Assembly: GCA_949825065.1 (NCBI GenBank)
Contig: OX463854.1
Coordinates: 11,197,112-11,261,111, forward strand
Length of the DNA stretch: 64,000 nucleotides
Direction: 5' to 3'
From: Odontocerum albicorne
Lineage: Eukaryota > Arthropoda > Insecta > Trichoptera > Odontoceridae
The notes beneath the pieces were generated by a model. It saw only the letters and a list, made by a program, of their open reading frames with translations, did no database searches and was not told the DNA's origin. Below, in pieces: positions 815 to 63,671 of this stretch (its first letter is position 1; each line of letters starts with the position of its first letter). A program made the position numbers and the translations under genes.

Positions 815-953
815 GGCGAAGTACTCGTAAGTGATGAGGGATTAGCAAGTATGTGTAAGGATATGGCAAAGTAAGTGATGAGGGATTAGCAAGTATGTGT
901 AAGGATATGGCAAAGTAAGTGATGAGGGATTAGCAAGTATGTGTAAGGATATG
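815..953. repeat. 44-bp tandem repeat, 3 units
   Basis: Three nearly identical units run in a row, each containing 'gtgatgagggattagcaag' and 'tatgtgtaaggatat'. The first unit reads gaagTACTCGTAagtg where the other two read aaagTAagtg, so it carries a clean 6-bp gain at a TA dinucleotide (see the octamer feature). Confidence 0.9.
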
Positions 954-1254
954 ATTGCAGTGTAAATGTTTCACATGAATGTTTTAGTATTAATGATACA
1001 TAAATGAAATTTGATATTAAAGGAATGAGACCACATTTTCTTAGGCAATGTGTAGAGATGTATAATAGTAATCTCTTCACAAATTGGTGAAGTTAACATT
1101 TTTTACTCTTCAATTCATATTTTAACTCAGAGGAAATCAATTTTCAATATTGTATTATGAGTAAAACATATAAAAACCTTATTTAACCATGTATATACCA
1201 TTGAATTTTGCAGAGAAGATAAAACGCCAAAATTTCGCCAAATCGAGTGTCAAA

Positions 1255-1500
1255 TATTCCTATCACGATATAATTCCTCTATATCCACACACCTTCTCAT
1301 AGGTATTTCTGGTATTCGTACTCTTCACTTTTACTTCTTTAAAAACTAGTCACTTGATCTTATCATACTTTTCTTAGTCATCCTTTACTACGCCTCTCAC
1401 TCAAATCTGCATTATATGATAAATATCTTTTGTTGCACAATCGTTCAACATGTACAAACAACCTCAATACGCTCTTTTTCATCCCATATAACATACCAGC
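1255..1500 (-). mobile_element. LINE-V 3' fragment (degenerate)
   Basis: On the minus strand this matches the C-terminal coding region and 3' end of the LINE repeated at 33470-34110 and elsewhere. Shared blocks are 'ccacacaccttctcata', 'cacttgatc..atactttcttagtc' and 'cgttcaacatgt..aaacaacctc'. It is strongly decayed, with no open frame. Confidence 0.5.
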
Positions 1501-1559
1501 TTTTAGCTGATTTAATTTTTTAATAATCAGTTATATTTTTAACGGAAGGCTTCTTATTG

Positions 1560-1985
1560 GAGAGATGATGATAGTAGTTGTTGGTAAATAAATAAAATAC
1601 GTTAAATCGCAATGCGGAAGGAGAGAGTGAATGAATGTTTTATTTATCAGTATGTGGGTATTAATACATTTCAGAATGGGCGCGGGAGTGCGCCCGCGAT
1701 ATATATTTATCTCGCTTCTGTGCGTGCAGAAATGGTCAATTGAAGTATTGTAGATATCGTAAATAGTATTGTGGGTAATAATCTATTTACGGAACCGGCG
1801 AGACAACGTGATGCGTTCTCTTTCTACTATGGAATGCGGCGCGATGTCCAGCCGCGTCAATGTTTTGGCATGTGACCTTCGGACTGTAAAATATAATTCG
1901 TCGAGGTGTCCAAAGGTCGTTTCGTCGGTCGTTGACCGTATGTGCTGACAATATTCAGCGACGACCGTGGTTCCCACATATTTTT
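1560..1985 (+). repeat. Repeat F copy 1 (unclassified, possibly LTR-like)
   Basis: Matches 21690-22020 in order: 'gtgaatgaatgttttattta', 'cgcgatatatatttatctcgc', 'gtgcgtgca', 'cggcgagacaa' and 'tcggtcgttgaccgtatgt'. It is GC-richer than its surroundings. An AATAAA-like motif and about 400 bp without an open frame would suit a solo LTR, but I found no matching TG/CA ends or target duplication. Confidence 0.5.
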
Positions 1986-2045
1986 AATTGTACGCTAACA
2001 AACTACATATTATTTTTTCTACATCTAAACATAGTTGAAATTATT

Positions 2046-2171
2046 TAATCTTAGCGGTATTTTCGATGAGACAAAGTAATCAACGATATTTTCGATGAGA
2101 CAAATTAATCAGCGGTATTTTCGATGAGACAAAGTACGAGTAATCAGCGGCATTTTCGATGAGACAAAGTA
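2046..2171. repeat. Tandem repeat, 4 units of about 29-36 bp
   Basis: The core 'tattttcgatgagacaaa' recurs four times (one copy reads 'cattttcg'). Between units 3 and 4 the junction reads caaagTACGAGTAatcag, while the unit 1/2 junction reads caaagTAatcaa. This is a clean 6-bp gain at TA. Confidence 0.85.
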
Positions 2172-2225
2172 AAAAATATGTATACCAAATAATCGACGAT
2201 TATTTGGTATACATATTTTTTACTT
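2167..2225. repeat. Near-perfect 59-bp palindrome
   Basis: Two 29-nt arms (2167-2195 and 2197-2225) are exact reverse complements around one base. The right arm belongs to the dispersed repeat that continues to 2330. The left arm looks like an inverted copy of it fused to the tandem array, as template switching during replication would produce. Confidence 0.9.
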
Positions 2226-3283: not shown

Positions 3284-3919
3284 AAAAACTAACCACGTAG
3301 AGTTTTTTTTTATTTCGGTTCGATTAACATTATTTAATATTCTTAATAATCAATTACGAGTATTATTTAGAATTTAAAAAAGGTTTGTAGGTTTTCGCGA
3401 TTAGAACTGTATTTTCGAAGCCTCGCACAATATTTTCGAAGCCTCGCACAATATTCTAGGATATTTAAAGTATATTTCTTGATTGGTGTCAATAATAAAA
3501 GGACAATAGACAGCGCCGTATAGAGAGCAAACTCTCCTCAAGGGCGCTCGAAAGTTTTTGTCGATAACAATATATTTCTCGTCATTCGAAAGTGTGTATG
3601 GTATTTCGTTATTGTAACAGCCCTAATGCAATTGAGTATTATTTAATAAATTGACTCTTTATTTTTCGTTAGTGTACAATTTTTCGATTAATATTTCAAT
3701 TGAATTGACCTTTATTTGCCCAAAATTATAAACTATATGGGATTTTAAATCTGTTCTAAAGTGAATAAAAGTGGGTTTGAATCCCGTGTTAGCGCCAAAA
3801 AACTAACCACGTAGAGTTTTTTTATTTCGGTTCGATTAACATTATTTAATATTCTTAATAATCAATTACGAGTATTATTTAGAATTTAAAATAGGTTTGT
3901 AGGCTTTCGTGATTAGAGC
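3284..3919. repeat. About 122-bp direct repeats (3284-3406 and 3797-3919)
   Basis: The two copies begin 'aaaaaactaaccacgtagag', are almost identical, and both carry TACGAGTA at the same place (3355 and 3867), so the octamer predates the duplication. The segment between holds a doubled 'ttcgaagcctcgcacaatat' (3414-3455), a block resembling 45385-45470 ('aataataaaaggacaat', 'ctcaagggcgctc' at 3489-3550) and a tRNA box-B-like 'ggtttgaatcccgtg' at 3775-3790. This could be a retroelement copied with its flank; the class is unclear. Confidence 0.6.
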
Positions 3920-4330
3920 GATACTGAAGTTGAAAACTAGCAAACACTGAAGATGAGAACTACAACTTTCTCGAAACGTCGACACTTACAACCACAAAAA
4001 CGCAGTTCAACCTCCGGAAGACCTTGTACTATTAAGTACTTCTTAATGTAAAGAAGCAATACTTTGACCTTGTTTTTAATTATTAAATTATGCAAATCAA
4101 AATGCATGTGTTTCCAATTTGTTTTTTAAATTGGTAGAATGGATGTAAATTTAAATAGGATCGGATGCAGAGTGGACCGCACTGTATATGATATATGCAA
4201 GTGGGGCCTAGCAGAGTTGCCTACCTTTGAGAGATTATGAGCATGGACTACATCACATGCAGCTTCCCAATGTATATATTTCTTCAACACTTGGAGGAAC
4301 TCCACAAACTAACATCTAACGATGCGACCT
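3920..4330. other. No gene seen
   Basis: Unique-looking sequence of somewhat higher GC near 4150-4330. No frame longer than a few dozen codons and no recognised element. Confidence 0.4.
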
Positions 4331-5639: not shown

Positions 5640-6715
5640 GTCCCCTGATCTGGCTGTTTGTTATATGTACTGTCACCTAATTTATTGAACATACTCGTAT
5701 ATGGAGTATAGATTATTAGAAAAATATTAGACTGATAGAAAGGTGGTTTTATCATAAGAGGTCGTAAAATCTTCAAAATAAGATCCGCAAATGATACATT
5801 AATTATAGCCAACTACGAAGGTGAGGTGGTCAAGCTCCTTCATAAGTTAAAATATAGAGCCACCAACAAGGACTAGACATATACAATAGTTCTCATCGTG
5901 GACCGATTTGACACTCCGATAAGAAGTGACTTGTTTAAGTGTTACGAAGAAGTCAACGAGTATGTCTACCTAGATGCTCTTATTTCGAGGAATCGAGGAT
6001 GTGAATCAAATAACCTAATATGAATTGAAATGATAAAATCAGTTACGACAAATCGGACAAAGGTACGGATTAACTTAAATCCTCGAGTTATGTCCCAAAT
6101 ATTCTCTATAACACTGTATGAAGTGGAAAAATGAACGGTGAGAAAGAAGGCAATGTACATTATCTTCAACATACGGTTTTGGATGCGGATGTATCGTATC
6201 CAAAAGACAGCAAGACACATCAACGTCTCTATCATTAAAAAAATGGAAGTTACCGAAAAACTTTCGAGAACCTGCGAAAAAAGAATCCTAGCATTATTTG
6301 ATTACTGAGAGAGTTGAGAAAAGGCGAGCAAGAGGAAAGTATCCTATGAGAGGAACGGTCCAAATAAAGAAGCTGGTGATTACTGGGACAATTAAGGGAA
6401 GGCAAGCAAGAGGAACATGATCTATGAGAGAGACGGACTAAATAAAGAAGTTGACGATTACTGGGACAGTTGCAGGAAGGCGAGCAAGAAGAACGCGACC
6501 TATTAGAGGGATGAACCAAATAAAGAAGTTGGTGATTACTGGGACAGTTGAGGGAAGGCGAGCAAGTGGAAAGTACCCTATGAGAGGGACGGACCAAATA
6601 AAGAAGTAAGCAGGATTCTTTTCAAACGCTGCATTCAGCGTGTCTGAGAAAGATGGAGACAGATGGAAAGCCGAGTCCGACAGTAGAAGACCACGACGTT
6701 CAGCATTGAGCATGC
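5640..6715 (+). pseudogene. LINE reverse transcriptase, 3' part, degenerate
   Basis: Joined across frameshifts, the plus strand reads as the second half of a non-LTR RT. First comes a remnant of the RQGC-LSP block near 5640. The active-site block is KIRSANDTLIIA near 5775, where YADD has decayed to SAND. EVNEYVYLDALIS follows near 5950, then the tail with TVRKK, WMRMYRIQK and KRILALF near 6125-6295. It ends in SVSEKDGDRWKAESDSRRP and RRSALSMR with a stop near 6715. The catalytic change and many stops show it is dead. After the stop comes 'gaagaagagc', an eroded GAA-type tail like that of the element at 61-62.5 kb. Two frames on the minus strand here are shadows. Confidence 0.8.
6300..6605 (+). 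repeat. 78-bp tandem amplification inside LINE C-terminus
   Basis: Units start at 6300, 6378, 6456 and 6534, an exact 78-bp (26-codon) period. Each encodes a version of ITGTVEGRRARGKYPMRGT plus DQIKKLV, the conserved basic segment found once in related LINE tails (compare 53783-53900). The period keeps frame, but at least two units contain stops, so selection for length is not shown. Confidence 0.9.
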
Positions 6716-7654
6716 GATGAAGAAGAGCAGATATTTGTCTAAAAGCACATATGATATTTATGATATATCGTAAAGAATGAAAAATTATTCATCCAACTAC
6801 GAGTATTATAACATTAAATTGTTACTTAACCGTACCAACCGCAATTAAAAGTGACTTTCACATTCAAAAGTTTATATTTAAAGGAATTAACGAGAGACAT
6901 TATGTATGTTAGTTTATATGTGCTGTATATACCTTAAATTTATTTTATTGCCATGGTTAAAATATACAGTTCTGGTCACGATTACATTTTTTGGACCATA
7001 TTTTTTTTGGTTAATCTAATTCATATATTTCCGTCAAACCATTTAAGAACAAAGTTTTTAATACGAAATTTCAATAGGAAAAAAATATTCGTCACGTTTT
7101 TAAAAAAAAATATATCTAAATGATGTTCACTTTAATGTGAAAGAAATCGACACGATAAACTAAGCATAAATGACAGACCTGTTTAGCTCTATGAAAACGT
7201 GTTCGATGTTCTATGTATTTCGTTTACCAAGACTGTATACTAATATTTATTTGAATACTTAAAGAATTTTTTATACTAAAACAGTTTATTGATTCAGACT
7301 AAAAAAATAACTTATATAAATGTTACACATCATCCTGATAATATGAAACTTGAAACCTTTTATTATTGGTGTTCTAAGTTTATTGATTTTTTTTAAATAT
7401 TTTGGTGCTTGTTATTTAATATGAATTGAAACTCAGCAATATTTTAATAAATAAAATGTCTTAAGTATAAAAAAATGGCTTTAAATATATGAAACTCTAT
7501 GCATTACGATGGTATTTACCCTCTTAATCTTATGGCTACTTTGAAACAAAGTAAGACCTGCAAATTACGCCAACATACAGAACTAAGCAATATTCAAGTA
7601 TAAATATTCTAGCCGAGATTATTCCGCCTGAAAACAACGTCTGGATATGAAATT
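6716..7654. other. No gene seen
   Basis: AT-rich, with homopolymer runs and stops in all frames. An octamer site lies at 6798. No recognisable element. Confidence 0.4.
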
Positions 7655-9080: not shown

Positions 9081-9289
9081 ATACAATAAATTGAATGTTT
9101 CTAATTTAAATACTTTTTTTGTATAATTCAATTATGGAGAGATTTAATTTGACTTTTGTTTAAGTTTAATTTTTATTCTTATACTCGTATACACATGTGT
9201 ATAAAAGTTTAAATAAATAAAAAAACAATCAAAATTGTACATTTATATTCCCCTGACCTTATTAAGTATCGAAAGATTGTCAAATAGAC

Positions 9290-11585: not shown

Positions 11586-12439
11586 TGAATTACCTATTCT
11601 CATAAATTGATGGGTGAAACCAAGAAAAAAAATCCTTGTACGACTGGATAGAATTGTCAAAAAGGAGGGCATCAGGAGGCATAATATCGTGGTTTACTTG
11701 GAGAGTGCTGAATAAACTCCATGTAGAGGCGATTAGATGTAAGGTGAATATGCAGAAAGGGGATTTCTTGAATGAAAGAAGCATTCTATGTGATTGAAGG
11801 GCTATACAGTATTTAAAGCACATGTTTATTTCTACAAACATTGGGACTACATGCTCGGGCCAATACCTGATTGATGGGAATAATAAAGTGACCTCTGTCG
11901 CATCATACTGAAAACACGTACCATTATTAGCAATTGTAAATCTGGAGAAGAAAATGAATAACTACAAAGTTTGTAATATATTTTTCGAAATCGAAATAGT
12001 CGGCTGAATTGAAATTTGCGTTATTTAATCGGAAGCTCGTTTGGGGTGACTGGGTCTACAGAAAGAGATATGCAGACTTCTTCTGGAGCTTAGTAATGCT
12101 GATAAAATGGAAACCTTCAGAAGGCTTTTAAGGTACTCGTAACTCTTTTAGATACGTGTTATATGATGGCTGAAGTGCTCATGGTGGGATCTCGGTAACT
12201 AAATGGTTCTAGGAAAAAATTTGATAGCATCTTAAACGTGCGCCGGGCTTATTTTTTTACGAGATTTTCAATGTTTTTTTAATTTAATAAACAACACAAT
12301 AAAGCAATGTGATTTACAAAACTTGATTTTAAAATTCATAAAAATTGTCTGGTTTCATTTCCAAGTGACAATCTATTTCAATCAACCAGAAAAATGTTAC
12401 AGAGGTTTTTAGTGAAAATCAGACGGGAATTATTTAAAA
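11586..12439. other. No gene recognised
   Basis: A minus-strand frame of 83 codons (11590-11841) and short plus-strand stretches with moderate GC were inspected. Neither shows a family motif. Octamer site at 12134. Confidence 0.35.
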
Positions 12440-13205
12440 AAAATACGTACCAATTTTAATAAAAACCGCAACCCCGTGTCGAACAATATGCATCTTAGCA
12501 ACTAGACGACGATGCTCAGTCAAGTGTTCGTAGCAAGTTGTATGTACGTGTCAAAACCGAAATATGAATATTTAGACGAAGATTTGTTTGCACTGCCTTC
12601 CCTGATAACCTGGAAGCAGCGGTGGCTGGTCCCGAGGTGCGCTGAGCACCAACGCACCTCGAGACGCTGAGCGAATATGAAATATCACTGTCTCACGGTT
12701 TACTGTACGAGTATGTCTCTGTCTGCCCTATACGAATTTGAGTTTCCGTCCGGTGCGTATTAGAGATCGCTCCGGTAGTATTGGCAAACTTGGCCGGTCA
12801 ATCTGAAGGAATATTTTTTTTAATTTTTTTAAATTTTTTAAAATTTACACTTAAATAAAAATACTCGTACTTTTTGTTAGTATTCTTATATTATACATAT
12901 TTAATCTATACAAATATTTAACATTTTTAGAAGTCATGTTTGCGAATATATAATTTAATTATTACGAATTATTTCTCAGGTTCAGCGCACCAACGCACCT
13001 CCAGACCAGCCGCTGCTGCCCGGAAATTGTAGTTTTGATTCACGCTGGTACCCATTTAAAAAAAAAAAAGGATTTGAGTTTTTTTCTCACTTAAGGTGTT
13101 TTTAAAATAATTCTTGCTAAGTTCTTGTTAATTGCCACGTAGCAATCTACTCACCAGGCTGTACTGTTTTGAATTAATTGTATACAACAAAAGTGTAATA
13201 CTGAT
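12440..13205 (+). mobile_element. SINE-C copy split by a hAT-like MITE
   Basis: The tail at 13060-13205 ('ggatttgag', 'ctcacttaaggtg', 'ttgccacgtagcaatctac', 'caggctgtactg', 'aaagtgtaatac') is SINE-C. The head remnant with 'gttttgattcacgctgg' (13030-13047) is separated from the upstream part by the insertion at 12617-13015. Confidence 0.55.
12617..13015. mobile_element. hAT-like MITE with long GC-rich TIRs
   Basis: The left end CAGCGGTGGCTGGTC..GAGGTGCGCTGAG is the inverted counterpart of the right end (GCGCACC..CACCTCCAGACCAGCCGCTG). Ends of the CAGYGGYGGCTGG type fit non-autonomous hAT elements. I could not fix the target duplication; the flanks 'cctggaag' and 'cccggaaa' are only partly alike. 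Octamer sites at 12706 and 12862 lie inside it. Confidence 0.65.
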
Positions 13206-14409
13206 GATGATAGTTTTCTTACTCAGTTTATGATTTTGATACGTGTAACAAATACATATATGATAGAAAATGTTACATACATCTTCATCCAGATGGAATA
13301 CACTATAAAATCTTCAACATGGAGATAAAATTTATTAACATAAAATCTTTCTTTTCTCGCCTCGTTTGCATTAAATCATTGGATATGTCTCTATTTTTTA
13401 TAGCAGCTATAACTCTATTTCACACTCGGTGTGAAACAGCAGTAATAATAAGCTCTCCAGTAAGGCAAGACAATCGTTAGCAAAACAATTGCTTACGGTT
13501 TTTTCTTCCACTTTATGTATTCAAGAACAAATCATTTGTTACTTTTCTCATGTCGCATTTAATACGGACAATTTGGAATTGGATATTTATTATATAATTT
13601 TTCGGTACAGTAAAAAAAATAACCAAAAGAATGTTGCGTACTACTATACGAGTATATCTCTAAAGTTGGTCAAGATTTTTAATGAAAATTGAATATAATT
13701 TATTTTATAAAAAATATTTTCAAATTATGGACTTACAAATGTGTGATCATACAAAAAAAAGCGATTTGTTTTCTTTTAATTTTTTTTTTGTTGATAAATC
13801 AAGTATGACATATTGAATTAGGAAGGCGTTGTTTCAAAGTTTCGATAAACCAGCTTTCCGATTGCAGTTAACTAATCTATTCAAGTCCAAGACACGCAGA
13901 CTTCTTAGAATGGTTGGTTAATCAACAACAGTCAACAAAGTTTATCTTTCCGTTCCAAATCTTGTGTCATGTACAAAAAGTATTGCATATTTTCATTTGA
14001 TTTTGATCAGTCATACATACCACTTTTATTTATATGCATAAAAATATTAGCAAGCATTCCGCCTTAAGAGAGCCTCGATACAGAAAGGAAAACACGTGTC
14101 TTGATAAAGTGGATTAGTGGCAAAAAAATAAAGTATTTTTCTTTATCAAATAATCTAACATGAAGTTCCACAAAGTTAAAGTTGGAAACTTGTTTTTTTA
14201 GTGTTTGACAATTATTAACAGGCTTATTAGATTCGACATGAGCATTAAATATCTTAGAAGACTTTTCCTTAAGTACTTCATTAGAAGTAAAAAAATATGG
14301 TAAGGTTTTTTTTTTTATTTGATTTGTGTAACTTTTGTTGGATCCCTTTTTTTTTGGTGGTGCCATTTAGGAATCCATGGTAATCTATTAAGGAACCGAG
14401 CTTTCTGCC
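13206..14409. other. No gene seen
   Basis: AT-rich. Frames at 13489-13692 and 14064-14366 lack recognisable motifs. Octamer site at 13647. Confidence 0.4.
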
Positions 14410-17549: not shown

Positions 17550-17645
17550 GTTCAACATGAGCTGGTTAGTTGGAAAAAAATGCTATATAATAATAAGACT
17601 GCCAGATGTAACATAAGACTGCCAGATGTAACATAGGAGTACTCG
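17550..17645 (+). mobile_element. SINE-C tail with 20-bp duplication
   Basis: Has 'gctggttagttgg' and a variant of the 'gcaataagcccgccagg' module. The 20-mer ataagactgccagatgtaac is present twice in direct order (17597-17637). Confidence 0.6.
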
Positions 17646-17839
17646 TATATAACCTTAAACACGAAATAATGAAAATAAAAACTTAACCTTTTCACTTATC
17701 CTCAAGTATTACGAGTATACATTTTGTATTCTTGAAAAAAGAACCAGTGAAACTTTTGATTACATCAGGACAATAGATAGTTAATAAATACACTATGAGT
17801 CGTTTATTCAGATACGACGTGATGGTATATATATCTATA

Positions 17840-18200: not shown

Positions 18201-18820
18201 TTCCCTTTATCCATTTTTCGAATATATTTTATTAAAAAAAGTCACCCTGTATATTCTTGAATGACACCTTGTGGCACGCTTACTCGTACATTGAATTGAT
18301 AACCCTTGATTTAAGCGATTGCTCAAAACCCTTGAGTGCACTCAATTCAAGAACCGCTAAGATTTATAAAGTACAATTCAGCATGACTCTTTTTCGAGTA
18401 TATTTGGGTCGAAAAAGGTCAGATATAATGTGCCTTCATAATTATATAATATCTGTTTGGAGCAGCGAATGGACCTCTAACGTCCACGAAGTACACTCTC
18501 TTCTTTTAAGGCTTCATTAAGACTCTTTTCCGAATTTAGAAATAAAAAAGAGAAACAGATGGGCTGATGCAATTGGCGATTGAATAGATTGGGAAACAAG
18601 GTAAGTGATCAAGATACATCGTTAGTTTTAAGAATACAACACGGTCCAATATGGCTGGCTTTAACGAGATGAGATGTATATTTAACAGAGAATGGATCGT
18701 TGAACTTAAGACGTCATTTGTTATTAAAGTCAAAATGATAACTGGGTGACAGTTCTTCATTATGAAATTTTTAAGTAAAACATTTATTTCGAATCGAATG
18801 TGCTTTACTATTACATATTA
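18201..18820. other. No gene seen
   Basis: The frame at 18257-18520 has no recognisable motif. Near 18547-18600 a plus-strand RWADAIGD-like trace resembles the RWADDI motif of LINE tails, but it is too short to call. Octamer site at 18281. Confidence 0.35.
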
Positions 18821-19105: not shown

Positions 19106-19960
19106 AGAACATGGTATGATGATGAAGTTGATAAAGGTATTTATATTGTAGAATTTCAATTTTGACTTAATAATTTTCAACCATTTTGAGTAAAAAAAAT
19201 CTTCACCATAAACTTGAAATAAGTGACAGGCGTGCGTCGATATATGAAGGAATTTATTAAATCGAAAATTACCATGTCGAGTTAAATAGTTTTTTTCCAC
19301 AATTTGGTTGAAAATCGTTTATTCAATTATAAGAAAGATGTTAAAAGGTTTTCTATGAAGACCCAACACAGGGACCCTTTTTTTGGGGGCTATAATGAAT
19401 CGATCCTGAAATCTCCGCGTCGAACACAAGTATTTTATAAATTGAGGCTTTGACGGTATGAAATTTTTTAAATATGAATTTCACTTCCACAACAGGATAT
19501 TTCCATTCATTTCGTGAATTGCATTCGGCACAAGCATGGATTAGGTTGCAGGCGACGGGGGCTTAATATCAATGCAAATATTGGATTTGAACAATGCACG
19601 ACATCCATTGAAATGGTGCCGTGCCGCGCACTGAAATGCCAACTGATCCGCGGTAAAACATACTCTAATTCCGCTGTTGACTAATCGATGACAGAGAATT
19701 AGCCCCTATTCAGCTCTAGACTGTCATCGCTGACTGCAATAAAATATAAATGAACAAATAAAGCAATAGTATATTAGATTGTTCATAGCAAATTATAGAT
19801 GGCTTTGGGAGCCAATAAGTGATTTACCAAATTTTATAACAGAAACCTGAAAATTAACTTTGAAATCTAATTAAATAAGATTTTTTTTCATGAAAGTCGT
19901 TATACTCGTATAGTCTGATAATAATTGTAACAAACAAAATGACTGTAGTTTCGTGTAATT
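19106..19960. other. No gene seen
   Basis: Slightly GC-richer near 19490-19740, without a family motif in any frame. Octamer site at 19903. Confidence 0.4.
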
Positions 19961-20400: not shown

Positions 20401-21079
20401 TACAAAGTGAAGACGAACAATAAAAATTCAGCTCAATGTTGTGTGTGGTACTCTATATTATATTTTTTTTAATAAACACACAGACAATGAAAATAGTTCC
20501 CGACTCTATGTAATGCCTTTATTTTATCTATATTAATTGAAGAAAAATATTTTTAAAACCAGTTGAGTTCGATCTCATCCCCACCCACGATGTCATGGGG
20601 AAAAAATAAGTTCCCATTTAGCGCGATCTGTAATGAAATAACAAACAAAATTATATAATTAAATTTTATAAAAAAAATACTTTCACTGTTAGTGTAGATA
20701 GAAAAAAATATTGACAGCCTCTAGTACTCGTAAATATTCCTCTGAAGTGGATATATGATATAAAAAAACTCATTGCACTATGAAATAGTAAGTGGAGCCC
20801 ATATAAAATGACCTATTATCGTAGTTAAATGTAACCCGGATGTAGTTAATGAATTCGTTTGCCTGTCAAATAAATATTCATTGTAAACCGGCTTTTAAGT
20901 GACACAAAATATAATTAATGTAGTATGCTCATCGAAAATTTTTAGACAAATACGTCATTTTTACTATCACTTCATAGAGAACAAAAAATTGGAACAGAGG
21001 CGTTTAAAATTAACTTTTTCCAGATATAGAAAAATTAACAAAATATATTTAATTTAATTGCTATGTAATGAATTCCGTA
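20401..21079. other. No gene seen
   Basis: AT-rich and unassigned, with an octamer site at 20725. Confidence 0.4.
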
Positions 21080-22020: not shown

Positions 22021-22954
22021 ATTCAATTTTATTTAGTTATGGACGTAGGTATCCTACAGCTTCAACGAGTTTATTGAACCTTTATTCGAATGACACTTGA
22101 CATCAATACAATAATTCCAATAAGAAGGCGGAAGTCGTTTTTATTTTAAATTTTATATTTTAGATCATTTCCAATTTCAGACGAATCATTATTGTTGCTT
22201 AATTTATCAAATTTCGAAATAATGTACCAAGCATACATTATGTGAATTTGTTATCAAACAATATATTATCTGTTGTACTTAAGTTCGTGTGTAACAATAG
22301 GTATTGCCATAAGTTCTTAAAACTGGTTGAAAGAAAAATATATTCACTGTATACTGTGATTTAATTTAGTTTTTTTTTTTCTAAATTTAATCACGCCATT
22401 TCACAAATATATGATTCGGCAGAGCTCTTTTTAAAATATCAAAGTTGCCAGTACGAGTATGATAGTTATCTTAACAAATTGTAGGTATTTAAATTCAATG
22501 AAAAAAAGAGAACTGATCAATTCGCTATAATGTTTTATAATTTGAAAGAAGGTTTTTGGATAACGTAAGCGAAATTCAAAGACAATATTTTTGTATCTTT
22601 TTTTAAAAGTATGATTGAATTTTTTTTTAAATAATTTTGAGCTGTATTTGTACTTGCATACTTATGTGTTATGTGAAATGTTTAATTGTAATAATGTTTT
22701 TTTATATTTTATTATTGTTAATTTATTTTAGGAATCTAATGAATTAGACAATGTCTAACAAGTCTTTGTTATGAATTAGACACTCCCAACATAAATTTAT
22801 TTTAAATATTGTTGTAAGATATATTTTACCATTGATGAAATAAACAAATAAATAACAAATCTATTGATGTAATAATAAACAAGAACATGGACATTTGATA
22901 ATGGAAAATCCCTCAAAATCGAGAAAGATTTTCAATCTTTTTTTTAGATGGATG
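22021..22954. other. No gene; retroposon tail near 22700-22865
   Basis: AT-rich throughout. 'gatgaaataaacaaataaataac' at 22836-22858 looks like the simple-repeat 3' end of a retroposon. Octamer site at 22452. Confidence 0.4.
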
Positions 22955-24860: not shown

Positions 24861-25376
24861 CCCGTATTGGCCTGACTATAAGGCGATCCTGATTATAAGG
24901 CGATCCACCTATTTTTTAAATCTGCTTTTTGGAGAAAAAAATATTTCCTTCACCATTATAATATTTTGAAAAATAAAATGCAAAATGTTTAACAAAAAAT
25001 ATTTATTAAAAAATAAAGTTCCCAGATAATAGTTAAGTACATGTTTAAACATGAAAAGAAGATATAAAAAAGTCCAACCACAGTAGCTAATCAGATCAGT
25101 CAGATTCACATATGGCTATAGCATCCTCAGCATACTCGTAAGTCCCATCTTCAGTGATGTTATCGTCTTCGGAATCCTCAATCATATTTTCCCACAAAAT
25201 ATCATTTTATTGGATATGCACCGTCCATTTTATTGGATATGCAACGTTATTTAAATCTATTGATGATGGTTTCATTGGAAATTTGATAACTTGTGACTCG
25301 AATATAAGGCGACCCCCCTATTTACGTGTCACCTTTTTAAATAAAAAAACCTCGCCTTATAGTCGGGCTAATACGG
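24861..25376 (-). mobile_element. Pogo/Tigger-like element, internally deleted
   Basis: TIRs are CCGTATTGGCCTGACTATAA on the left and the complement of CCGTATTAGCCCGACTATAA on the right (2 mismatches in 20), followed by 'ggcga'. Subterminal 'ataaggcgacc' motifs repeat inside. Comparison with the empty LINE-K copy places it at a TA, as expected for this superfamily. It retains only the 3' end of a transposase (next entry). Confidence 0.8.
25100..25243 (-). pseudogene. C-terminal remnant of pogo-like transposase
   Basis: On the minus strand one frame gives CISNKMDG (near 25227-25243). After a frame change it continues NDILWENMIEDSEDDNITED to a stop near 25103. A CGISNALDGTEDDxLW-like block with an acidic tail is typical of insect pogo/Tigger-type transposases (from memory). 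The frame change is due to a tandem duplication of 'gcatatccaataaaatg' (25202-25243). The octamer at 25133 lies inside the acidic tail and adds two codons in frame. Confidence 0.65.
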
Positions 25377-25754
25377 TACATTATTTGCGAAAAAACAACA
25401 GGTAACTTAATTTGGACACACAATTTTAATGAATCTGGGTTTGTTGCCTTTCATTGGTCTTGTCCCCAGTAAACTTGTATTTTACCTGTATCTTACAGAG
25501 GACATATAGCATGAAAAAATAAATCGATACTTCTTTCCGATTTTTGATTATATAAAACACCGTTGCACATTCTCATCAACCTGACAAACAGTGACACTCA
25601 ATTACATATGTACGAGTATATCATACATCAAGCGAAATCAAACTCCTCACACTTCATCACTCCAGACAGACCAAAACATTCATCCCACAATATACCGTAC
25701 ATCATCATAAAAATTAACTGTATCTTACTTAAAACTCTTTCTTATTTGCATTAA

Positions 25755-26224
25755 TTTCTGTTGTCTTCAATCCGCTGTCTTTTTTATGTTTGTCTCGTTG
25801 ATTTTTTTCTCATTTCAGGTAAAGTAAGAACAAAGATTATTTATTTTACCTAATTTAAATTCTTTGCTTTTCATGTTCACTTCCACGTAATGCCAATTCA
25901 CGTTTGATTGTCTTAATTTAACTGGGTAATTGACTATTGAATTTATGAACCTTAATTTGTTAGCAATAAAGTCTTTAAATTATATTACGAGTATATATCG
26001 CATTAATATCATTTACGAAAAATAAAGATACATTTTAAATTGCGTTATATTGCTTGAAGACATTTAAACAAGTATAATACCAGATTCAACACATTTCTGA
26101 CTGAACTGTAGTATTCATGTAAATTAAATATTTTTTTTTGTTAGATAAGATATTCATAATTGCATTTATAAGAAATAGCCTGAAATAAACGCATGTTGAA
26201 AAATGTACGCTTGGTTGACTGTCT
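25755..26224. other. No gene seen
   Basis: AT-rich and unassigned. Octamer site at 25986. Confidence 0.4.
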
Positions 26225-26885: not shown

Positions 26886-27133
26886 ATGAGGTCTGAAAAT
26901 TCATTGACGATACGAACATACGAGTATTAAAGAGCGTCTTTGAGAGAAAACATTGTCTTCGACTCGAGCCTTCGGGCTTACAAGAAATCGGGTAGGCATG
27001 AAACTCGCAGTTTTTCATCACATCTATTGACAATACTACTGCATGTGAAGAAGCTATAAAACTTACACGAGTCTTGCGCGTGAGTTAAAACAAGAACTAG
27101 AACAGAATTTTACTGTTTTTTTTAAAGATACCA

Positions 27134-37294: not shown

Positions 37295-37545
37295 ATATAC
37301 ATACATACCATTACACCATTTTCCTGTCTGAGTACACAGAGGGTAAATAGCGTCCATGGAATAAATAAATGAAGAAATACTAACTATGATAAAAAATATA
37401 CAGTGAAAATTTTGAGTGAAATACGTGGTAGAGGAAAACCAAGAAAAGAATCATAATTTGAAAGAAGGAAATACGAGGGTCGATATTTTGAAAATTGTAA
37501 AACATTTTTGAATACATACGTAAACTATAATACATCATACTCGTA
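37295..37545. mobile_element. Two LINE-V pieces head to head, plus a mariner-like end
   Basis: 37297-37340 is a minus-oriented 3' terminus ('acatacataccattacacca'). 37350-37470 is plus-oriented tail coding ('atggaataaataaatgaag', 'gtagaggaaaaccaag'). At 37472 the LINE gives way to TACGAGGGTCGATATTTTGA, a CGAGGG-type mariner-like end. A TACTCGTA octamer lies at 37538. Confidence 0.5.
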
Positions 37546-39139: not shown

Positions 39140-39245
39140 TTCTCTTTAATGGCAAATATATTTTACGCCTATATTTCGGGGGGTTTAAGAATAGCTATGA
39201 CTTTGATCATATTATATATATGTATATACGAGTATTATTTGAAAA
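39140..39245 (+). mobile_element. SINE-A middle/tail fragment
   Basis: 'tttacgcctatatttcgggggg' and 'gaatagctatgactttgatcata' match the SINE-A middle module. The octamer at 39227 interrupts its AT-rich part. Confidence 0.55.
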
Positions 39246-43312: not shown

Positions 43313-44189
43313 GTATGTTATACATTATCGTAACTTAATTACGTTGTACATCGTTAAACATGCTTACGTTGTACATCGTTAAACCACCCTACTACCAAAT
43401 CTATCCTAAACCCGACCAGCCTCAAGTGTCATGACTAACCCTCAGGAGCACGATCTGTAGACTGTCCGTTGAACACATCCCGGTAGACGAAACGCTAGAC
43501 AAGTAGTAATCAAAATAGCTTCCGCAGCGGAACAAAAACAAAATCATCCACAAAACATCTAACATGAATTTTCACAGTGCTTGAAGGAACGAACGGGAAG
43601 GAAATTCAAAAGAAGCATTAAAACCTGAAAACCTGAAAAGTAATATCTTGCACATACCATACACCACTTTAAAAAATACAAAAGATCACATTAAATAATT
43701 TGTGGAAAATTGTAAGGCCCCGGAAGAAGACATATCAACAAAAATTTGCTTGAGACACGGTACGGCACGATGAATGTAAATAATTCTCAGCTCAATACTT
43801 TTTCAAAAACAAACTTAATATTTATTTAACAGTTCATTGTGTGTAACCAGTAAAGATGAGTAAAGGAGGCTACTTGGGTGCACTATTTATTCATAATATA
43901 TGTATATTTTTTTTGAAATTCAAGAAAAAGAGAAGAATAGTTGAAGAGAGAGAAAAAATCGAGGTTGAAACATGTAATATTACTTACTTGAAATGAAGCG
44001 TTTAATCAATTCATTTTTAAAACATACCCATAACTATGCGAGTCTAACATTAGTTAGTAACTGGTCCTAGAATCTCACAAATATGCTACGAGTATTGATT
44101 TGAAATTTACATGTTAAGAGTTTTGAACGGGTTTAACTGAAAACAACAATTTCAGAAATTACGAGTATTAAAAAGCAATTGCAAATATA
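43313..44189. other. No gene seen
   Basis: A short direct repeat 'cttacgttgtacatcgttaaa' is near 43340-43385. Octamers at 44087 and 44160. No coding-like frame. Confidence 0.4.
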
Positions 44190-47138: not shown

Positions 47139-47394
47139 CTAAGGAGACCAATCAACAATCTGTTTGAGCGAAGCGCAAGTTCATGATCGGAAAGACGGCG
47201 AATATTTTCGACGAGATAAGAGGGGGCGACGGGACAGTTAAGTATATTATACAATAGATATATTATGTGAACTTGTCATCTATTTCTCACGTTCAACCAG
47301 TTCAGCTCCTTCTGGCGAAGTGATGTGATTGTGCTTTATTAAGTTCATTATATCTTTATGAAAGACGGGAGGATAGAATACCTATATACTCGTA

Positions 47395-49685: not shown

Positions 49686-50124
49686 AAACATTAATCCGAA
49701 GATGCCCAATAACACACGGGCAATTGCCTAGTTTTTTTGACCCTGGATACAAAACATCTTATATGTAATATTTTGTTTCACATTATTACACGATAGGCCA
49801 TCTGAGGCTCTGTCGTACTGAGTACTTTTGTGAATCATCTTGTGGATGAAAAAGCGCATGTGCATTTATTAGTTTAAAGTGTGTATACTGTTGAACTTCA
49901 GCAAACGCAAAGTAATGACAGATAACACGAAAACTATCGATGGCATGGATATCAAAATTCCAAAACAACTGGCAAGTTTAATCTATTGCAGTCTTTTATT
50001 TTATACAAATTTTATAAAACGTTGTTTTTACACTGCTTTGTAGCACTTTAAGAATTTATTAATAGCATATAATCTACAGAAATAATTTAGATATACGAGT
50101 ATAACGGTCTTAGAGAAAACCGCA

Positions 50125-50190: not shown

Positions 50191-50719
50191 ATGATTTTCT
50201 TACGTTTGTACATTTACGAGTATATCTTGTATATTAATTAAATCAATAGAAACACCGAGGAAATCCTCTTCAGACTATTTTCAGAGATTTTAATAATTCT
50301 ATGACTGATATGTTTTATTTTAAAAGACAATTCTTTATTTATTATCAGAATTTATATTACAAGAAAATATTACAATGAAATTGTAACGAAAATTCACAAA
50401 TTATGGCAGCCCTGTTATAAAAGCAGAATACAAGTGAATGATCTAACAAATGTGACAATTATTATGGGCAAAACAACGTGAAATTAAAAATCGCGTAATT
50501 ATCCTTTCGCTTCGCTTAATATTCAAAACGAATGCTTTTCATTTATTAAAATACATTTCTTCTAAGTTTTCAATTTGGCCCGCTCCATTTTTAAGTTTAC
50601 CAAATGACTATTACCGAAGCGAAATTCATTCATCGTGGATGGCACGTGTACGAGTATAACGTGATTCGTTTTTTTATTATAATTTCAAAATTATATTATT
50701 TAAAAAAATATATGATTAT
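50191..50719. other. No gene seen
   Basis: AT-rich. Octamers at 50215 and 50649 (and one at 50094 just before). Confidence 0.4.
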
Positions 50720-50929: not shown

Positions 50930-51157
50930 ACTATAGTTCGGAAATTCTAGGATGAGTCCTGTGACAGCTCACAAATTTGCCCCAATACAACCTTATGTAA
51001 TGTACGAGTATTTACCTAAATAACTTGCTATTTATTAGAATTGAGGCCTATATTAAAGTTGATAAAATAATAAAAATTACTGAACATCGTTACATGGTTG
51101 TATTGGGGCAAATTTGTGAGCTGTCTCAGGACTCTTCCTAAAATTTCCAAACTATAA
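50930..51157. mobile_element. MITE with about 61-bp TIRs
   Basis: Left 50932-50992 and right 51096-51156 are inverted copies, sharing 'gacagctcacaaatttgccc' and 'caatacaacc', and starting TATAGTTYGGAAAT at a probable TA. The interior of about 100 bp is non-coding. An octamer (51003) lies next to the left TIR. Confidence 0.85.
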
Positions 51158-52989: not shown

Positions 52990-53430
52990 CGTTGATTATA
53001 TACATTGATGTATCAAACATCGTTAAATATACATTGATGTATCAAACATCGTTAAATATACATTACTGTATCAAACATCGTTGAATATACATTGATGTAT
53101 CAAACATCGTTGAATATACATTGATGTATCGAACATCGTTGAATAAACATTGATGTATCGAACATCGTTGAATATACTCGTACATTGATGTATCAAACAT
53201 CGTTGGTTATACGAGTATATTGATGTATCAAACATCGTTGACTATACATTGATGTATCAAACATCGTTGGTTATATATTGATGTATGAAACATCGTTGAC
53301 TATACATTGATGTATCAAACATCGTTGGTTATATATTGATATATCAAACATCGTTGACTATACATTTATGTATCAAACATCGTTCAAACATCGTTGACTA
53401 TACTCGTACATTGATGTATCAAACATCATA
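52990..53430. repeat. 29-bp satellite, about 14 units
   Basis: The unit is 'tacattgatgtatcaaacat' plus 'cgttgaata' or the variants cgttggtta/cgttgacta. Two sub-variants alternate near the 3' side, suggesting higher-order doubling. At 53175, 53210 and 53401 the same TA of the unit is replaced by TACTCGTA or TACGAGTA, while the neighbouring units are intact. This is the clearest proof that the octamer is inserted. Confidence 0.95.
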
Positions 53431-55430: not shown

Positions 55431-56310
55431 CAATTTATATTTATAATTTTGTAATATTTTTAAGCTGTCAATAATAGTGGATTCAAAACCCAAGTAACAG
55501 CCTCCTTGAGGAGAGTCAGCTCAATATAAATTGTTATTTTATAATAATATTATTATTATTATGTTGTGCCCATTAGACGTTGTCATTCCAAGTCTCATAC
55601 TAAAGATATAATCATTTTTTTTTTCCGAATCGTTCCCGATTCCTCACCAAATGGAAACTTCAACAATTTCAATACTAGCTCGCACATAAATATTTTTACT
55701 TCTTCAAAATCACTCAGGCTTGGACATATGCTTGTTTTGGTTTATCATTCAATCCCCTTTGCATAGTTTTTCATTATATTTCATTCCGAGTGACCTTGTG
55801 ATTCTAGATAATAATTTTAATATTTATCAAAGCTTTGAGCTTGAATTTCGTGGAAATCAGTTAATTCTATTCGAAATATAATTTACTTGTGGAATTATAA
55901 GTATTGAAATTACATTGAGAAACATAAATACCTACAATAGAAACATGAACGTAATTGCTGTCTATCAAGTAACAACTTCACGGAATTCATGATCTATTAT
56001 ATATTTATTTGAACGATTTATTATTAGAAGTTTTATACCGGTTTTCAGTCAAATAATCATTTAAATAATGAACTGTAATGAGATCTAACCACTCCTTTCT
56101 GCAAGAGTAGGATATAAAAGTGTAATTGCTGGCGATCTGCCTTCAGCGTGTTTGAACTTCTTTTTGCAGACAATTTAGAAAGACAAATAGTTCTAGACTA
56201 CTGTTCTACGGAGGAGAGTCAAGAGCAGCCCTTGAAGTTGATGGAGTGACCAACTGAACAACGTGATGCGCAATTCTTTATTTACTCGTACGATCTTGCA
56301 GAAGGCAAAA
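55431..56310. other. No gene recognised
   Basis: The frame at 55566-55766 has no motif. Octamer at 56283. Confidence 0.4.
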
Positions 56311-56862: not shown

Positions 56863-57079
56863 TATATCTAGTAGCAGAGCGATAATAGTAAAAAATAACC
56901 TAGAAATGTAAAAAATGTCATCACTTTTAATATTTCCTTTTGATATAAGCTAGATATTATGTATGAATTATATCACCTAATATAACTGAGCAATTATCTC
57001 GTAAATTACCAAGATCAGTACGCCTGAACAGTCTCGGGACAGGGTTCTAGAACAATAGACGCATTTAATACTCGTAAGT

Positions 57080-60640: not shown

Positions 60641-61100
60641 CGTTCCTATTGATTGACTCTAAACCGTATATGACAATAGTCTACTTATTTGAAGACAATA
60701 TTAAGAACACTAAACTATAACTATAACATTGTATTAATAAAATGAAACATAAATAATTAAACCGTAACTATGACAACACATAATCTAACGGACATAAGTA
60801 CAACCGATTTTATATATTATACAATAGGTTAAATACTAATTTAAAGTATATTAAAAAAAAATTACAACATAACTATATGTATTTACTGATCTTGGATGGA
60901 ACTAGAATTACATTAATTTAAAAATCCTAGGTACTATGTTATTTCCACATTCAACGCCTGTATTCGGCCACTATAAACGAGTAACCTTAGTTTGTGACGA
61001 GAATTCGTATTTGAAATTCTTAGAGCAAAAAAATTCAAATGCCACAAATTTAAATCTCCCAAATCACTTAACTTTTATTGTTATGAAGATAAAAGTTTGT
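60641..61100. other. No gene seen
   Basis: AT-rich flank of the LINE insertion. Confidence 0.4.
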
Positions 61101-62528
61101 ATGCCTTAATTGGACTGTTTAATGGAATATATGACACAGGGACCATCCCCCAAGATTGGTTAAAATCTGTATTTATTACACTGCCCAAAAAACAACACCC
61201 AAAAAAATGTAATGATTATCGCCTCATAAGTCTTATGAGTCATATTCTGAAATTGTTTCTTAAAATAATACATGCCAGAATAAGACTGAAATGCGAGCGA
61301 GATTTGGATGACACTCAGTTTGGGTTCAGGAATGGTTTTGGTACCCGTGAAGCGCTGACAACAATAAACATATTATTACAAAAATGTTACGACCAAAGAA
61401 AAGACATCTATGCTTGTTTTATTGATTATGAAAAAGCATTTGACAGGGTTAAACACACATATTTAATTGAGATGCTGTTGAGATGTGGTATAGATGAAAA
61501 GGATGTGAGAATAATCAAGAATCTGTACTGGGACCAAAACGCTATCATTAAATTGGAAAACGGAAACACCTCGCAAGGTATTCCCATTCAGCGAGGAGTC
61601 CGTCAGGGGTGTGTTCTCTCACCAACTTTATTCAATCTATACTCTGACTTGGTCTTTAAGGAAGCGCTGACTGAGACAAATCTCGGTGTGAAGGTCAATG
61701 GGGTGGTCATCAATAATATCAGATATGCGGATGACACCGTTCTAATTGCGGACAGTTTAAAAGGCCTTCAAGAACTGCTTGATAAAGTTGACTCCGTTGG
61801 TGAACGTTTTGGTATGAACATTAATGTGAGCAAAACTAAAATGATGGTTTTTAGCCGAGAATGTCATCCAAATGTCCACCTTACGCTGAGGGGTGTTGTT
61901 GTCGAGAGGGTGAAACAGTTCAGGTACCTGGGAAGCATGATTACTGAGAAACTGGATCCTGACATTGAGATAAAATGCAGAATAGAAGCGGCACGAACGG
62001 CTTTTAATAAAATGAAAAACCTTCTTTGTGACGATAATATAAACTTAAAGCTGAGACAAAGAATGGTCAAATGTTACGTATGGTCTGTCTTACTTTACGG
62101 CGTAGAGGCGTGGACTCTTAAAGTTAACATAATAAACCGCCTTGAAGCGTTTGAAATGTGGATCCACCGTAGAATGTTAAGAATATCTTGGACCGATATG
62201 ATAACAAACACTGATGTACTACGTAGAGCCAATGCAAATAGAGAACTATTCACCACTGTTAAGCTCCGTAAAACATCATATTTTGGCCATGTAATGAGAG
62301 GTGACAAATACACCGTACTTCAGCTCGTCATGAAGGGGAAGATCGAGGGCCGCAGAGGGGTCGGCAGAAGACAGCTCTCCTGGCTTCGAAACATCCGACA
62401 ATGGACCGGCGTCAGAACTGTGGGGGAGCTGTTTCGCGCCGCCCAGGACAGGGAAGCTTTCTCTCAGATGGTCGTCAACGTCGGGGGGACCCGGCAGGAC
62501 ACGTGAAGAAGAAGAAGATGCCTTAATT
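61101..62528 (+). mobile_element. 5'-truncated LINE insertion with 11-bp target duplication
   Basis: ATGCCTTAATT occurs at 61101-61111 and 62518-62528. Everything between (61112-62517, 1406 bp) is the insertion. It starts inside the RT domain (5' truncation) and ends six GAA-type triplets after the stop codon, without poly(A). The empty site would read tttgtATGCCTTAATTaagagg. Intact coding and a perfect duplication point to recent insertion. Confidence 0.93.
61112..62506 (+). CDS. Reverse transcriptase C-terminal portion of a non-LTR retrotransposon
   Basis: 469 codons are open from a TTG at 61097. The first five codons are target DNA, so the element's own frame begins at about Gly6 (GLFNGIYDTG). 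Domains in order: RT fingers with IPQDWLKSVFITLPKK (17-32) and NDYRLISL (39-46); FIDYEKAFDRV with catalytic Asp near 110; RGVRQGCVLSPTLFN (166-180); YADD at 210-213 with the catalytic pair intact; thumb; then the LLYGVEAWTL landmark, HRRMLRISWTD, YFGHVMRGDKY, KIEGRRGVGRRQLSWL and a final QDREAFSQMV before TGA at 62504. The endonuclease domain and start of ORF2 are missing, so it cannot be autonomous. Clade not assigned with certainty. Confidence 0.93.
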   Translation, partial: GLFNGIYDTGTIPQDWLKSVFITLPKKQHPKKCNDYRLISLMSHILKLFLKIIHARIRLKCERDLDDTQFGFRNGFGTREALTTINILLQKCYDQRKDIYACFIDYEKAFDRVKHTYLIEMLLRCGIDEKDVRIIKNLYWDQNAIIKLENGNTSQGIPIQRGVRQGCVLSPTLFNLYSDLVFKEALTETNLGVKVNGVVINNIRYADDTVLIADSLKGLQELLDKVDSVGERFGMNINVSKTKMMVFSRECHPNVHLTLRGVVVERVKQFRYLGSMITEKLDPDIEIKCRIEAARTAFNKMKNLLCDDNINLKLRQRMVKCYVWSVLLYGVEAWTLKVNIINRLEAFEMWIHRRMLRISWTDMITNTDVLRRANANRELFTTVKLRKTSYFGHVMRGDKYTVLQLVMKGKIEGRRGVGRRQLSWLRNIRQWTGVRTVGELFRAAQDREAFSQMVVNVGGTRQDT

Positions 62529-62583
62529 AAGAGGTTTAAAATATATCATCTCAATAAACTTAAGGAAAAATCATTTCACCAAT

Positions 62584-62755
62584 GGACTGTGTTTAAACTT
62601 CGTGGACTGCATGTTATAATATTGAATAATAGCTTACTTTATCGTTTAAACTTCGTGGACTTGCATGTTATAATATTGAATAACAGCTTACTTTATTGTT
62701 TAAACTTCGTGGAATGCATGTTATAATATTGAATAACAGCTTACTTAATTGTTCC
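62584..62755. repeat. About 59-bp tandem repeat, 3 units
   Basis: 'gtttaaacttcgtgga' plus 'gcatgttataatattgaata' plus 'cagcttactttatt' repeated three times with few changes. Adjacent to the LINE insertion but outside its target duplication. Confidence 0.9.
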
Positions 62756-63671
62756 ACTACTTACATTATTCTAAGTGATCTTCATTCACATACAAAAAAA
62801 AAATTTCTTATCGGAATATTTTTGTTTGAATGTGTTCATTTATTTAATTACGTATATTTTTCTCTCTTATAAAATATTAAAAAGAAAACAAAATATTTAG
62901 ACTAACAATTTGTCTATTTGTTACAATGTACGATCTGTTTGACCATTAAAAATAATCACAATAATAAGCACGTACATACATAGTACAGGTTATGCAAAAA
63001 CGTGACAGGCCAAGGCGAAGGAGATCCAAAGCCCTAACATACAAAAATAAATAATAATTATTTTTGGAAAAAATGTAAAAAACTTATATTCGTGTAATTC
63101 ATCCACTCCAATGCATATACTCGTAAAAACGCATATTAGAACATTTGCATATTTTCAGAGATATCAAAAAGATTCAAAGTAAAAAAGTACATTTTTTGTG
63201 ACAATTTAAAGCGATTAAGTGTTGAGTTGCTTAAGTCGAGATAATACATTTTGCACTTTGGACGACGATATTAATGAATACACAATTTAAAGGTATTATG
63301 AAAGCAGCTCAGTTTTGGCACATACCATCCTATGGATGCACTAAATGTTATATGGCATATGCCCTAAATTCAGAAACTAATTAATTCACCCTTCCTGATT
63401 AATCTTGCACCTTTCAGGCGAGAGGGTGCGGGAATGGTAGCAAACAATGTGCATATCTCGGCTTTCAATTAGGTTTACCTTAATTATATTGAAAATTACA
63501 AATTTACCACAAGGTATTTTAGTATATTTAGAAAATTTCTAATTCTCTCATTATTTTACTATATCATTTTTGGGTAAGTCTGTTTTCAAAGTCTATTCTG
63601 CAAGTAACATATGACCTACACGTGGCAAGTGATTGAAATAGAAAACTGATATAACTGAGTGAATTTACTTT
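62756..63671. other. No gene seen
   Basis: AT-rich, unassigned. Octamer at 63118. Confidence 0.4.

What the first reader, a model, noticed from the sequence alone, without database searches (positions are those of the whole stretch)
822..63125. A dispersed 6-bp gain at TA (TA to TACTCGTA or TACGAGTA), 37 sites in 64 kb
Seen: 37 exact octamers by eye, 18 in one orientation and 19 in the other, against an expected 2-3 from base composition. In tandem arrays at 822, 2135, 53175, 53210 and 53401, neighbouring units give the pre-insertion state, always plain TA. The site at 25133 lies inside a transposase remnant and adds two codons in frame. Known: Tc1/mariner elements duplicate TA and leave a few terminal bases when excised. 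Inference: these are footprints of a TA-targeting transposon with ends CGAG..CTCG or CTCG..CGAG, where repair keeps four bases from either end. The density would mean a very large excision burst, or an unknown process that inserts CTCG with TA duplication. I know of no description of such a scar at this density.
Basis: partly seen in the sequence, partly recalled or inferred. Interest (0 to 1): 0.92.

Follow-up and report, generated by a model that had tools for sequence, protein, structure and literature searches.

The report
Jumping-gene excision scars, hundreds of thousands
The short word TACTCGTA, scattered through this animal genome about 350,000 times more often than expected, is best read as the scar left each time a mariner jumping gene was cut out, so the genome seems to carry a written record of one transposon's past moves.

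Summary
The window holds 37 exact TACTCGTA/TACGAGTA octamers (18/19; 1.5 expected). The whole 1.287 Gb assembly holds 381,502, against 30,151 for the reversed word. Single-substitution neighbours are hardly enriched, so the word is exact and young. Repeat copies without the octamer have plain TA, giving a 6-bp gain. Flanks share an A-x-A-TA-T-x-T preference. This is what excision predicts for a TA-inserting transposon with ends CGAG...CTCG, if four terminal bases are kept and the GA/TC mismatch is resolved. Such an element exists here: a 1,336-bp DD34D mariner, TIRs starting CGAGG, 20,293 TIR matches genome-wide, about 2% divergence among 8 copies, and many open 354-aa transposase frames. A second CGAG-ended mariner has 3,747 matches. 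The scar type is not new in kind: Minos leaves a six-bp footprint. New are the scale (about 17 octamers per surviving TIR match) and the length: reviewed mariners cut three bases in, these scars keep four. That this mariner made the scars is inferred from ends, flanks, abundance and age; no single excision was observed, and a Minos-like source is not excluded.

The parts
822..829 (+). scar octamer TACTCGTA at the edge of a 44-bp tandem array
   Evidence: array
2135..2142 (-). scar octamer in tandem repeat; neighbouring unit has plain TA
3355..3362 (-). scar octamer shared with the repeat copy at 3867
3867..3874 (-). scar octamer shared with the repeat copy at 3355
5692..5699 (+). scar octamer
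6798..6805 (-). scar octamer
9182..9189 (+). scar octamer
12134..12141 (+). scar octamer
12706..12713 (-). scar octamer
12862..12869 (+). scar octamer
13647..13654 (-). scar octamer
17640..17647 (+). scar octamer
17710..17717 (-). scar octamer
18281..18288 (+). scar octamer
19903..19910 (+). scar octamer
20725..20732 (+). scar octamer
22452..22459 (-). scar octamer
25133..25140 (+). scar octamer inside an open minus-strand frame, two codons added in frame
25611..25618 (-). scar octamer
25986..25993 (-). scar octamer
26919..26926 (-). scar octamer
37538..37545 (+). scar octamer
39227..39234 (-). scar octamer
44087..44094 (-). scar octamer
44160..44167 (-). scar octamer
47387..47394 (+). scar octamer
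50094..50101 (-). scar octamer
50215..50222 (-). scar octamer
50649..50656 (-). scar octamer
51003..51010 (-). scar octamer; unscarred interspersed copy in L012 has plain TA (95% over 173 bp)
53175..53182 (+). scar octamer in 29-bp tandem array; best-matching other units plain TA
53210..53217 (-). scar octamer in the same array, opposite orientation; best-matching other units plain TA
53401..53408 (+). scar octamer just past the same array; best-matching units plain TA, one unit AA
55005..55012 (+). scar octamer
56283..56290 (+). scar octamer
57069..57076 (+). scar octamer
63118..63125 (+). scar octamer

Best explanation
The octamers are excision footprints of cut-and-paste transposons that insert at TA, duplicate it, and have ends TA-CGAG...CTCG-TA; chiefly a recently amplified 1,336-bp DD34D mariner ('mariner A' here), perhaps helped by a second CGAG-ended mariner ('B'). 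Steps: (1) insertion at a TA within A-x-A-TA-T-x-T (shown for A's ends and for scars); (2) transposase cuts one strand at the tip and the other four bases inside, so each flank keeps a 3' overhang CGAG (inferred from scar length); (3) the two overhangs pair by their outer C:G and G:C, leaving a GA/TC mismatch (inferred); (4) host repair resolves it to TACGAGTA or TACTCGTA (both words are seen, but since elements insert in either orientation the equal strand counts do not show how the mismatch is resolved); (5) the element reinserts elsewhere. Later duplication of scarred repeats and satellites multiplied some octamers (shown for one array). Sub-probabilities: Tc1/mariner-type excision scars 0.9; mariner A the main source, given that, about 0.8.
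For: Genome-wide excess of one exact word, 381,502 against 30,151 reversed. Plain TA in the best paralogue at 12 of 12 sites whose best paralogue is at least 79% identical. Scar flanks prefer A at -3 and -1 and T at +1 and +3: mean score 2.08 against 1.47 for all TAs, 0 of 10,000 resamplings reach it; a flank profile learned only from mariner A ends (44 left, 52 right) separates 102 de-duplicated scars from 21,300 TAs with AUC 0.71, 0 of 20,000 resamplings. Mariner A: 20,293 matches to its 31-base end with up to 3 mismatches, control 0; of 10 full-length loci fetched, 7 have TA-CGAG at both ends, 1 an altered left end, 2 gave only one end by my criterion; 8 of 8 measured are 1,336 bp with mean pairwise difference 2.1%; the transposase of one copy has Mos1 HTH and Transposase_1 domains and Mos1 as best solved relative; DD34D with all three D in the 6 of 10 copies where both motifs matched my pattern, N at the second place in a seventh. 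52 of the 150 scored N-terminal matches (of 55,325 first-look candidates) have frames of 354-366 aa, three of these 52 also listing a stop inside the match (hand count). Young scars: 24 neighbours 153 against 141. Other scar lengths show no clear excess: TACGATA 28 against 25, TACGAGGTA 1 against 0.
Against: Mos1 and Sleeping Beauty/mariner transposases are described as cutting three bases in (passages of PMC5481204; PMC7827188), which by analogy predicts TACGATA, not seen in excess. No excision was observed directly, and no allele pair with element and scar at one site. The window has no match to the ends of A or B at up to 6 mismatches. Among A copies chosen for an exact right end, plus four earlier loci, many left ends are CTAT (18 of 34) or CTAG (4 of 34), yet TACTATTA (13 against 16) and TACTAGTA (1 against 1) are not enriched. 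Scar flanks are asymmetric (T at -1 in 8 of 102, the matching base on the other side in 21 of 102; counts, Fisher p 0.015, not corrected for the several positions looked at); one side fits A's flanks well, the other less. Octamers outnumber A's TIR matches about 17 to 1. The flank preference is shared by many Tc1/mariner elements (recalled), so it does not single out A.
Confidence: 0.74

Rival explanations
1. The scars come from a Minos-like Tc1 element, whose documented footprint is six bp and whose ends also begin CGAG, now rare or lost here; the CGAG mariners are bystanders.
For: Minos footprint size (PMC3386967 passage) and end primer TACGAGCCCC... (PMC3680223 passage) fit the scar exactly; reviewed mariners cut three bases in.
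Against: The D. hydei Minos 25-base end has 0 matches at up to 3 mismatches in the assembly. Of 14 DDE_3 loci fetched (150 scored, 17,761 first-look candidates), 8 gave some inverted end pair and none of these began CGAG; 6 gave no pair, so their ends are untested. A diverged Minos end would be missed.
Confidence: 0.15
2. The octamer is part of a repeat consensus or satellite and was multiplied by repeat amplification rather than by separate excisions.
For: A 57-bp satellite in L013 holds 28 of the listed octamer sites, and 3355/3867 are copies of one repeat.
Against: After removing sites with identical 8-base flanks 110 of 134 sampled sites remain, and 102 of 104 once two arrays are masked; flanks differ and share only a weak palindromic preference; empty copies with plain TA exist.
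Confidence: 0.04
3. A sequencing, base-calling or assembly artefact inserts CTCGTA at TA.
For: No reads could be inspected.
Against: Target preference of the same kind as that of real element ends; octamers inside satellites shared by many units; a slight surplus of CpG-decay forms (window: TACTTGTA 6, TACTCATA 5; 224 kb: 19 against 12 and 13 against 9), too weak to count for much. I recall no artefact of this form.
Confidence: 0.02
4. An unknown process inserts CTCG with TA duplication directly, without a transposon having been there.
For: No occupied/scarred allele pair has been seen.
Against: The inserted bases equal the ends of elements abundant in the same genome.
Confidence: 0.03

Closest known systems
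Minos excision footprint (Tc1/mariner, Drosophila)
   Same: Six bp gained (passage); a primer at the element's end begins TACGAG (passage). The heteroduplex model of Arca et al. 1997 is known to me by title and recall only; the paper is not held.
   Different: Minos's own end sequence is absent at up to 3 mismatches; the CGAG-ended elements found here are mariners with Mos1-type HTH, not shown to be Minos.
Mos1-type mariner footprints
   Same: Candidate source element A is a mariner by domains, spacing, length, TIRs and TA target.
   Different: Mos1 cuts three bases inside (passage); the scars here keep four.
Sleeping Beauty footprint C(A/T)GTA
   Same: Same logic (my reading): overhangs pair by outer C:G and G:C, the centre is a mismatch resolved either way (footprint from a table row in PMC3878927; three-base overhangs from a passage in PMC7827188).
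   Different: One mismatched centre base there, two here; CGAG instead of CAG.
Transposon excision survey in rice (PMC4423477)
   Same: Genome-wide look at DNA-transposon excisions including Mariner (passages, one from the abstract).
   Different: There excisions almost always went with deletions or filler DNA; here one uniform scar is seen (deletions were not looked for).

Membership tests
Tc1/mariner excision footprint | Pre-insertion state is a single TA | tested here: met
   12 of 12 sites with a paralogue at least 79% identical have plain TA in the best match (window 2135, 51003, 53175, 53210, 53401; L011:218, L017:5559, L018:673, L018:4770, L020:9669, L021:4968, L023:827); 6 sites with only 67-75% paralogues are mixed
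Tc1/mariner excision footprint | Retained bases equal the element's terminal bases | tested here: met
   CGAG/CTCG in the octamer; elements with TA-CGAG...CTCG-TA
Tc1/mariner excision footprint | Target preference around TA like that of real insertions | tested here: met
   good on one side of the scar, weaker on the other
Tc1/mariner excision footprint | Element seen at the site in another allele or relative | not testable with these tools
   one assembly, no relatives held (note), no reads
Mariner (DD34D), for element A | Mos1-type HTH and Transposase_1 domains, DD34D spacing | tested here: met
   domains in one copy, Mos1 best solved relative, 34 residues between second and third position in 7 of 10 copies, one of these 7 with N at the second
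Mariner (DD34D), for element A | About 1.3 kb, short TIRs, TA on both sides | tested here: met
   1,336 bp in 8 of 8, TIR about 30 bp in the one compared
Mariner (DD34D), for the scar | Three-base footprint | tested here: not met
   TACGATA 28 against 25 control, TACGAGTA 135 against 8 (arrays not masked)
Minos | Minos terminal sequence | tested here: not met
   0 matches at up to 3 mismatches to the 25-base end
Minos | Six-bp footprint | tested here: met
   Minos value from PMC3386967

The most novel reading that the evidence does not exclude
A DD34D mariner that cuts four bases inside its ends, unlike the three-base cut described for mariners, has written a uniform, countable scar at some 350,000 places of one genome, so that scars outnumber surviving TIR ends by more than ten to one and record almost its whole cut-and-paste history.
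Probability: 0.55. Interest if true: 0.78.

Novelty: new variant of a known kind. Interest (0 to 1): 0.68.

Why it matters
Excision of DNA transposons is usually hard to see because footprints are short and varied. Here one exact eight-base word marks excision sites across a genome, next to thousands of young candidate source elements. That would allow excision rate, repair choice, target preference and age to be counted from an assembly, would show how far cut-and-paste elements turn over compared with surviving copies, and would warn that six-base in-frame gains in genes can be transposon scars. If the source is the mariner, its stagger differs from that of Mos1.

Tried and rejected
Canonical Minos as source: no end match. 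DDE_3 loci as source: 14 of 150 scored hits fetched; 8 with an end pair, none CGAG; 6 without. Other scar lengths: TACGATA 28 against 25, TACGTA 52 against 82, TACGAGGTA 1 against 0 (the last too few to judge). Scars of the CTAT and CTAG left ends: not enriched. Nested scars (TACTCGTACTCGTA and the two mixed forms): 0 in the 224 kb sample, although two octamers six bases apart are listed at C1:25700/25706; not counted genome-wide. Flank asymmetry genome-wide: T before TACTCGTA 36,730 against control 10,090; the matching count for A after it did not complete, so the asymmetry rests on 102 sites. Rfam (gathering threshold) and tRNA scans of the window gave nothing. In one search three of the printed joined targets (L011, L026, L027) use one flank twice; not used. 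Papers: ten searches listed no paper that I could see to describe this octamer or a scar census of this kind; one search found no paper with either octamer as a whole word. The library is open-access only and I judged from listings.
Full report
Observation. The window contains 37 exact octamers TACTCGTA/TACGAGTA, 18 and 19, where shuffles give 1.5. The word stands alone in sequence space: its 24 one-substitution neighbours occur 0 to 6 times each in the window, the highest being the CpG-decay forms TACTTGTA (6) and TACTCATA (5). The window lies in contig C22 of an assembly of 1,287,057,991 bases in 1,241 contigs; the whole assembly holds 381,502 octamers, the reversed control word 30,151, an excess of about 351,000, or one per 3.7 kb.

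Sampling. Sixteen further 10-kb stretches of the assembly (4 of the 20 asked for lay beyond short contigs) and the window were scored together. With two tandem arrays masked the octamer counts 104 against 8 reversed, and its neighbours 153 against 141. If the surplus of 12 neighbours were all decay, mean divergence would be about 1.6% (12 over 96 times 8); the counting error allows anything from zero to some 6% (my arithmetic). The scars are young. Not every octamer is an event: a 57-bp satellite in L013 holds 28 of the listed sites.

Empty sites. Flanks joined at a single TA were searched against the held sequence. 48 of 135 sites gave some ungapped paralogue across the junction. 28 of these are the L013 satellite, whose units share the octamer; 2 are the copies at 3355 and 3867, which share it with each other. 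Of the other 18, the 12 whose best paralogue is at least 79% identical have plain TA there: 2135, 51003, 53175, 53210 and 53401 in the window, and L011:218, L017:5559, L018:673, L018:4770, L020:9669, L021:4968 and L023:827 outside. One further unit in the 53-kb array has AA. The 6 sites with only weak paralogues (67-75%: L009:5626, L011:8410, L013:6482, L015:1792, L019:6421, L024:4914) are mixed. The gain is therefore six bases with TA duplicated.

Target preference. Around the collapsed TA the scars prefer A at -1 and -3 and T at +1 and +3; none of 10,000 resamplings reaches the score. Such a palindromic preference is of the kind known for Tc1/mariner insertion (recalled; the passages of PMC3878927 that I saw speak of bendability).

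Source. Sampled stretches held elements starting TACGAGGCATATCCAGAAAGTAAGTGTACTG. The assembly has 20,293 matches at up to three mismatches, with 0 for the control. The copies met first are shorter: L011 is 935 bp, L025 and L026 about 960, the latter two with 255-aa frames that lack the N-terminal DNA-binding part. Full-length relatives exist in databases (P0001, 354 aa, 94% identical over 213 shared residues). Searching the assembly with the N-terminal 141 residues of P0001 gave 150 scored matches (of 55,325 first-look candidates) at 95-97% identity; 52 have frames of 354-366 aa, three of them also listing a stop inside the match (hand count). Of ten such loci fetched, seven show TA-CGAG ends on both sides, one an altered left end, two only one end by my criterion. 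The eight that could be measured are all 1,336 bp including both TAs and differ pairwise by 1.4-2.8%. The protein of one copy has Mos1 HTH and Transposase_1 domains and Mos1 as best solved relative; the second and third catalytic positions are 34 residues apart in the 7 of 10 copies where both motifs matched, six of them with D and one with N at the second. A second mariner, TACGAGGGTTGCTACTTAAGTTTTGAG, has 3,747 matches.

Link between scars and element. Four points tie them together: the terminal four bases, TA duplication, youth, and flanks. A profile made from mariner A flanks alone separates scars from random TAs with AUC 0.71. At -1, A's right ends have A 31, G 11, C 6, T 4 of 52 and left ends A 22, G 13, C 8, T 1 of 44; scars have A 65, G 20, C 9, T 8 on one side and A 44, G 27, T 21, C 10 on the other, of 102. 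The fit is good on one side and weaker on the other. Many Tc1/mariner elements share such a preference (recalled), so it supports the class more than the individual family. The window itself has no match to the ends of A or B.

Mechanism. With 3' overhangs CGAG on both flanks, the outer C and G pair and the middle GA faces a mismatch; resolving it gives TACGAGTA or TACTCGTA. Equal counts on the two strands do not test this, because elements insert in both orientations. Sleeping Beauty follows the same scheme with three bases (table row and passage). The three-base product that Mos1-like cutting would give, TACGATA, is not enriched (28 against 25), so four bases must be retained. Minos, with an end primer beginning TACGAG, leaves six bp (passages). 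Whether mariner A really cuts four bases in, or whether an unseen Minos-like element did the work, is the main open point.

Loose ends. Left ends were read for 30 of 40 fetched partner stretches of A copies chosen for an exact right end, plus four earlier loci: 18 begin CTAT, 10 CGAG (4 of these the earlier loci), 4 CTAG and 2 other. The scars that CTAT or CTAG ends would leave are not enriched. A possible reason (inference) is that CTAT pairs with the right overhang only at its first two bases, so that its own 3' end is the one trimmed and only TACTCGTA results; this would also orient the flanks, in line with the asymmetry seen, but the genome-wide count was only half answered. Right ends were selected by their CGAG, so their variation is not known.

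Host. The assembly carries no name here. I saw the length of 16 contigs of 43.5 to 63.5 Mb. LINE and mariner content and named database relatives of the transposase in a psyllid, an aphid, ants, spiders and others suggest an arthropod, though mariners move between hosts; I go no further.

Verdict. Real, strong, and explained in kind: transposon excision scars. The scale and the four-base retention next to what looks like the source mariner are what a specialist would find surprising.

Noticed in passing
window 60998-62506 (+): Open frame of 502 aa with a reverse transcriptase domain (RVT_1, E 6.9e-42), probably a LINE fragment.
   Followed up: partly
window 4327-4607 and 6299-6607: Tandem arrays of a 35-bp unit (8 copies, 99% matches) and a 78-bp unit (4 copies).
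   Followed up: no
L013:2514-4238: 57-bp satellite with 28 listed TACGAGTA sites: a scar, or a chance octamer, that was amplified with its monomer.
   Followed up: partly
L081-L120, left ends of mariner A copies: The terminal bases of the left end vary as CTAT, CGAG or CTAG while the rest of the TIR is well conserved; the variation falls in the stretch that would be the overhang.
   Followed up: partly
L037: A mariner A copy lies about 13 bases from an ACGAGTA word, perhaps an octamer, in its flank.
   Followed up: no
assembly G000, protein search: Copies of the 255-residue N-terminally deleted mariner A frame are strikingly uniform in the 149 scored of 81,642 first-look candidates (95-97% identity apart from the query itself, most without a stop), a large young non-autonomous family.
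   Followed up: partly
L067-L080: Other Tc1/mariner families in the same genome: Tc1-like with CAGT ends (L068, L079), mariners with CTAGGTTAGTC (L076) and ACACATCGATC (L074) ends, several with long transposase frames.
   Followed up: partly
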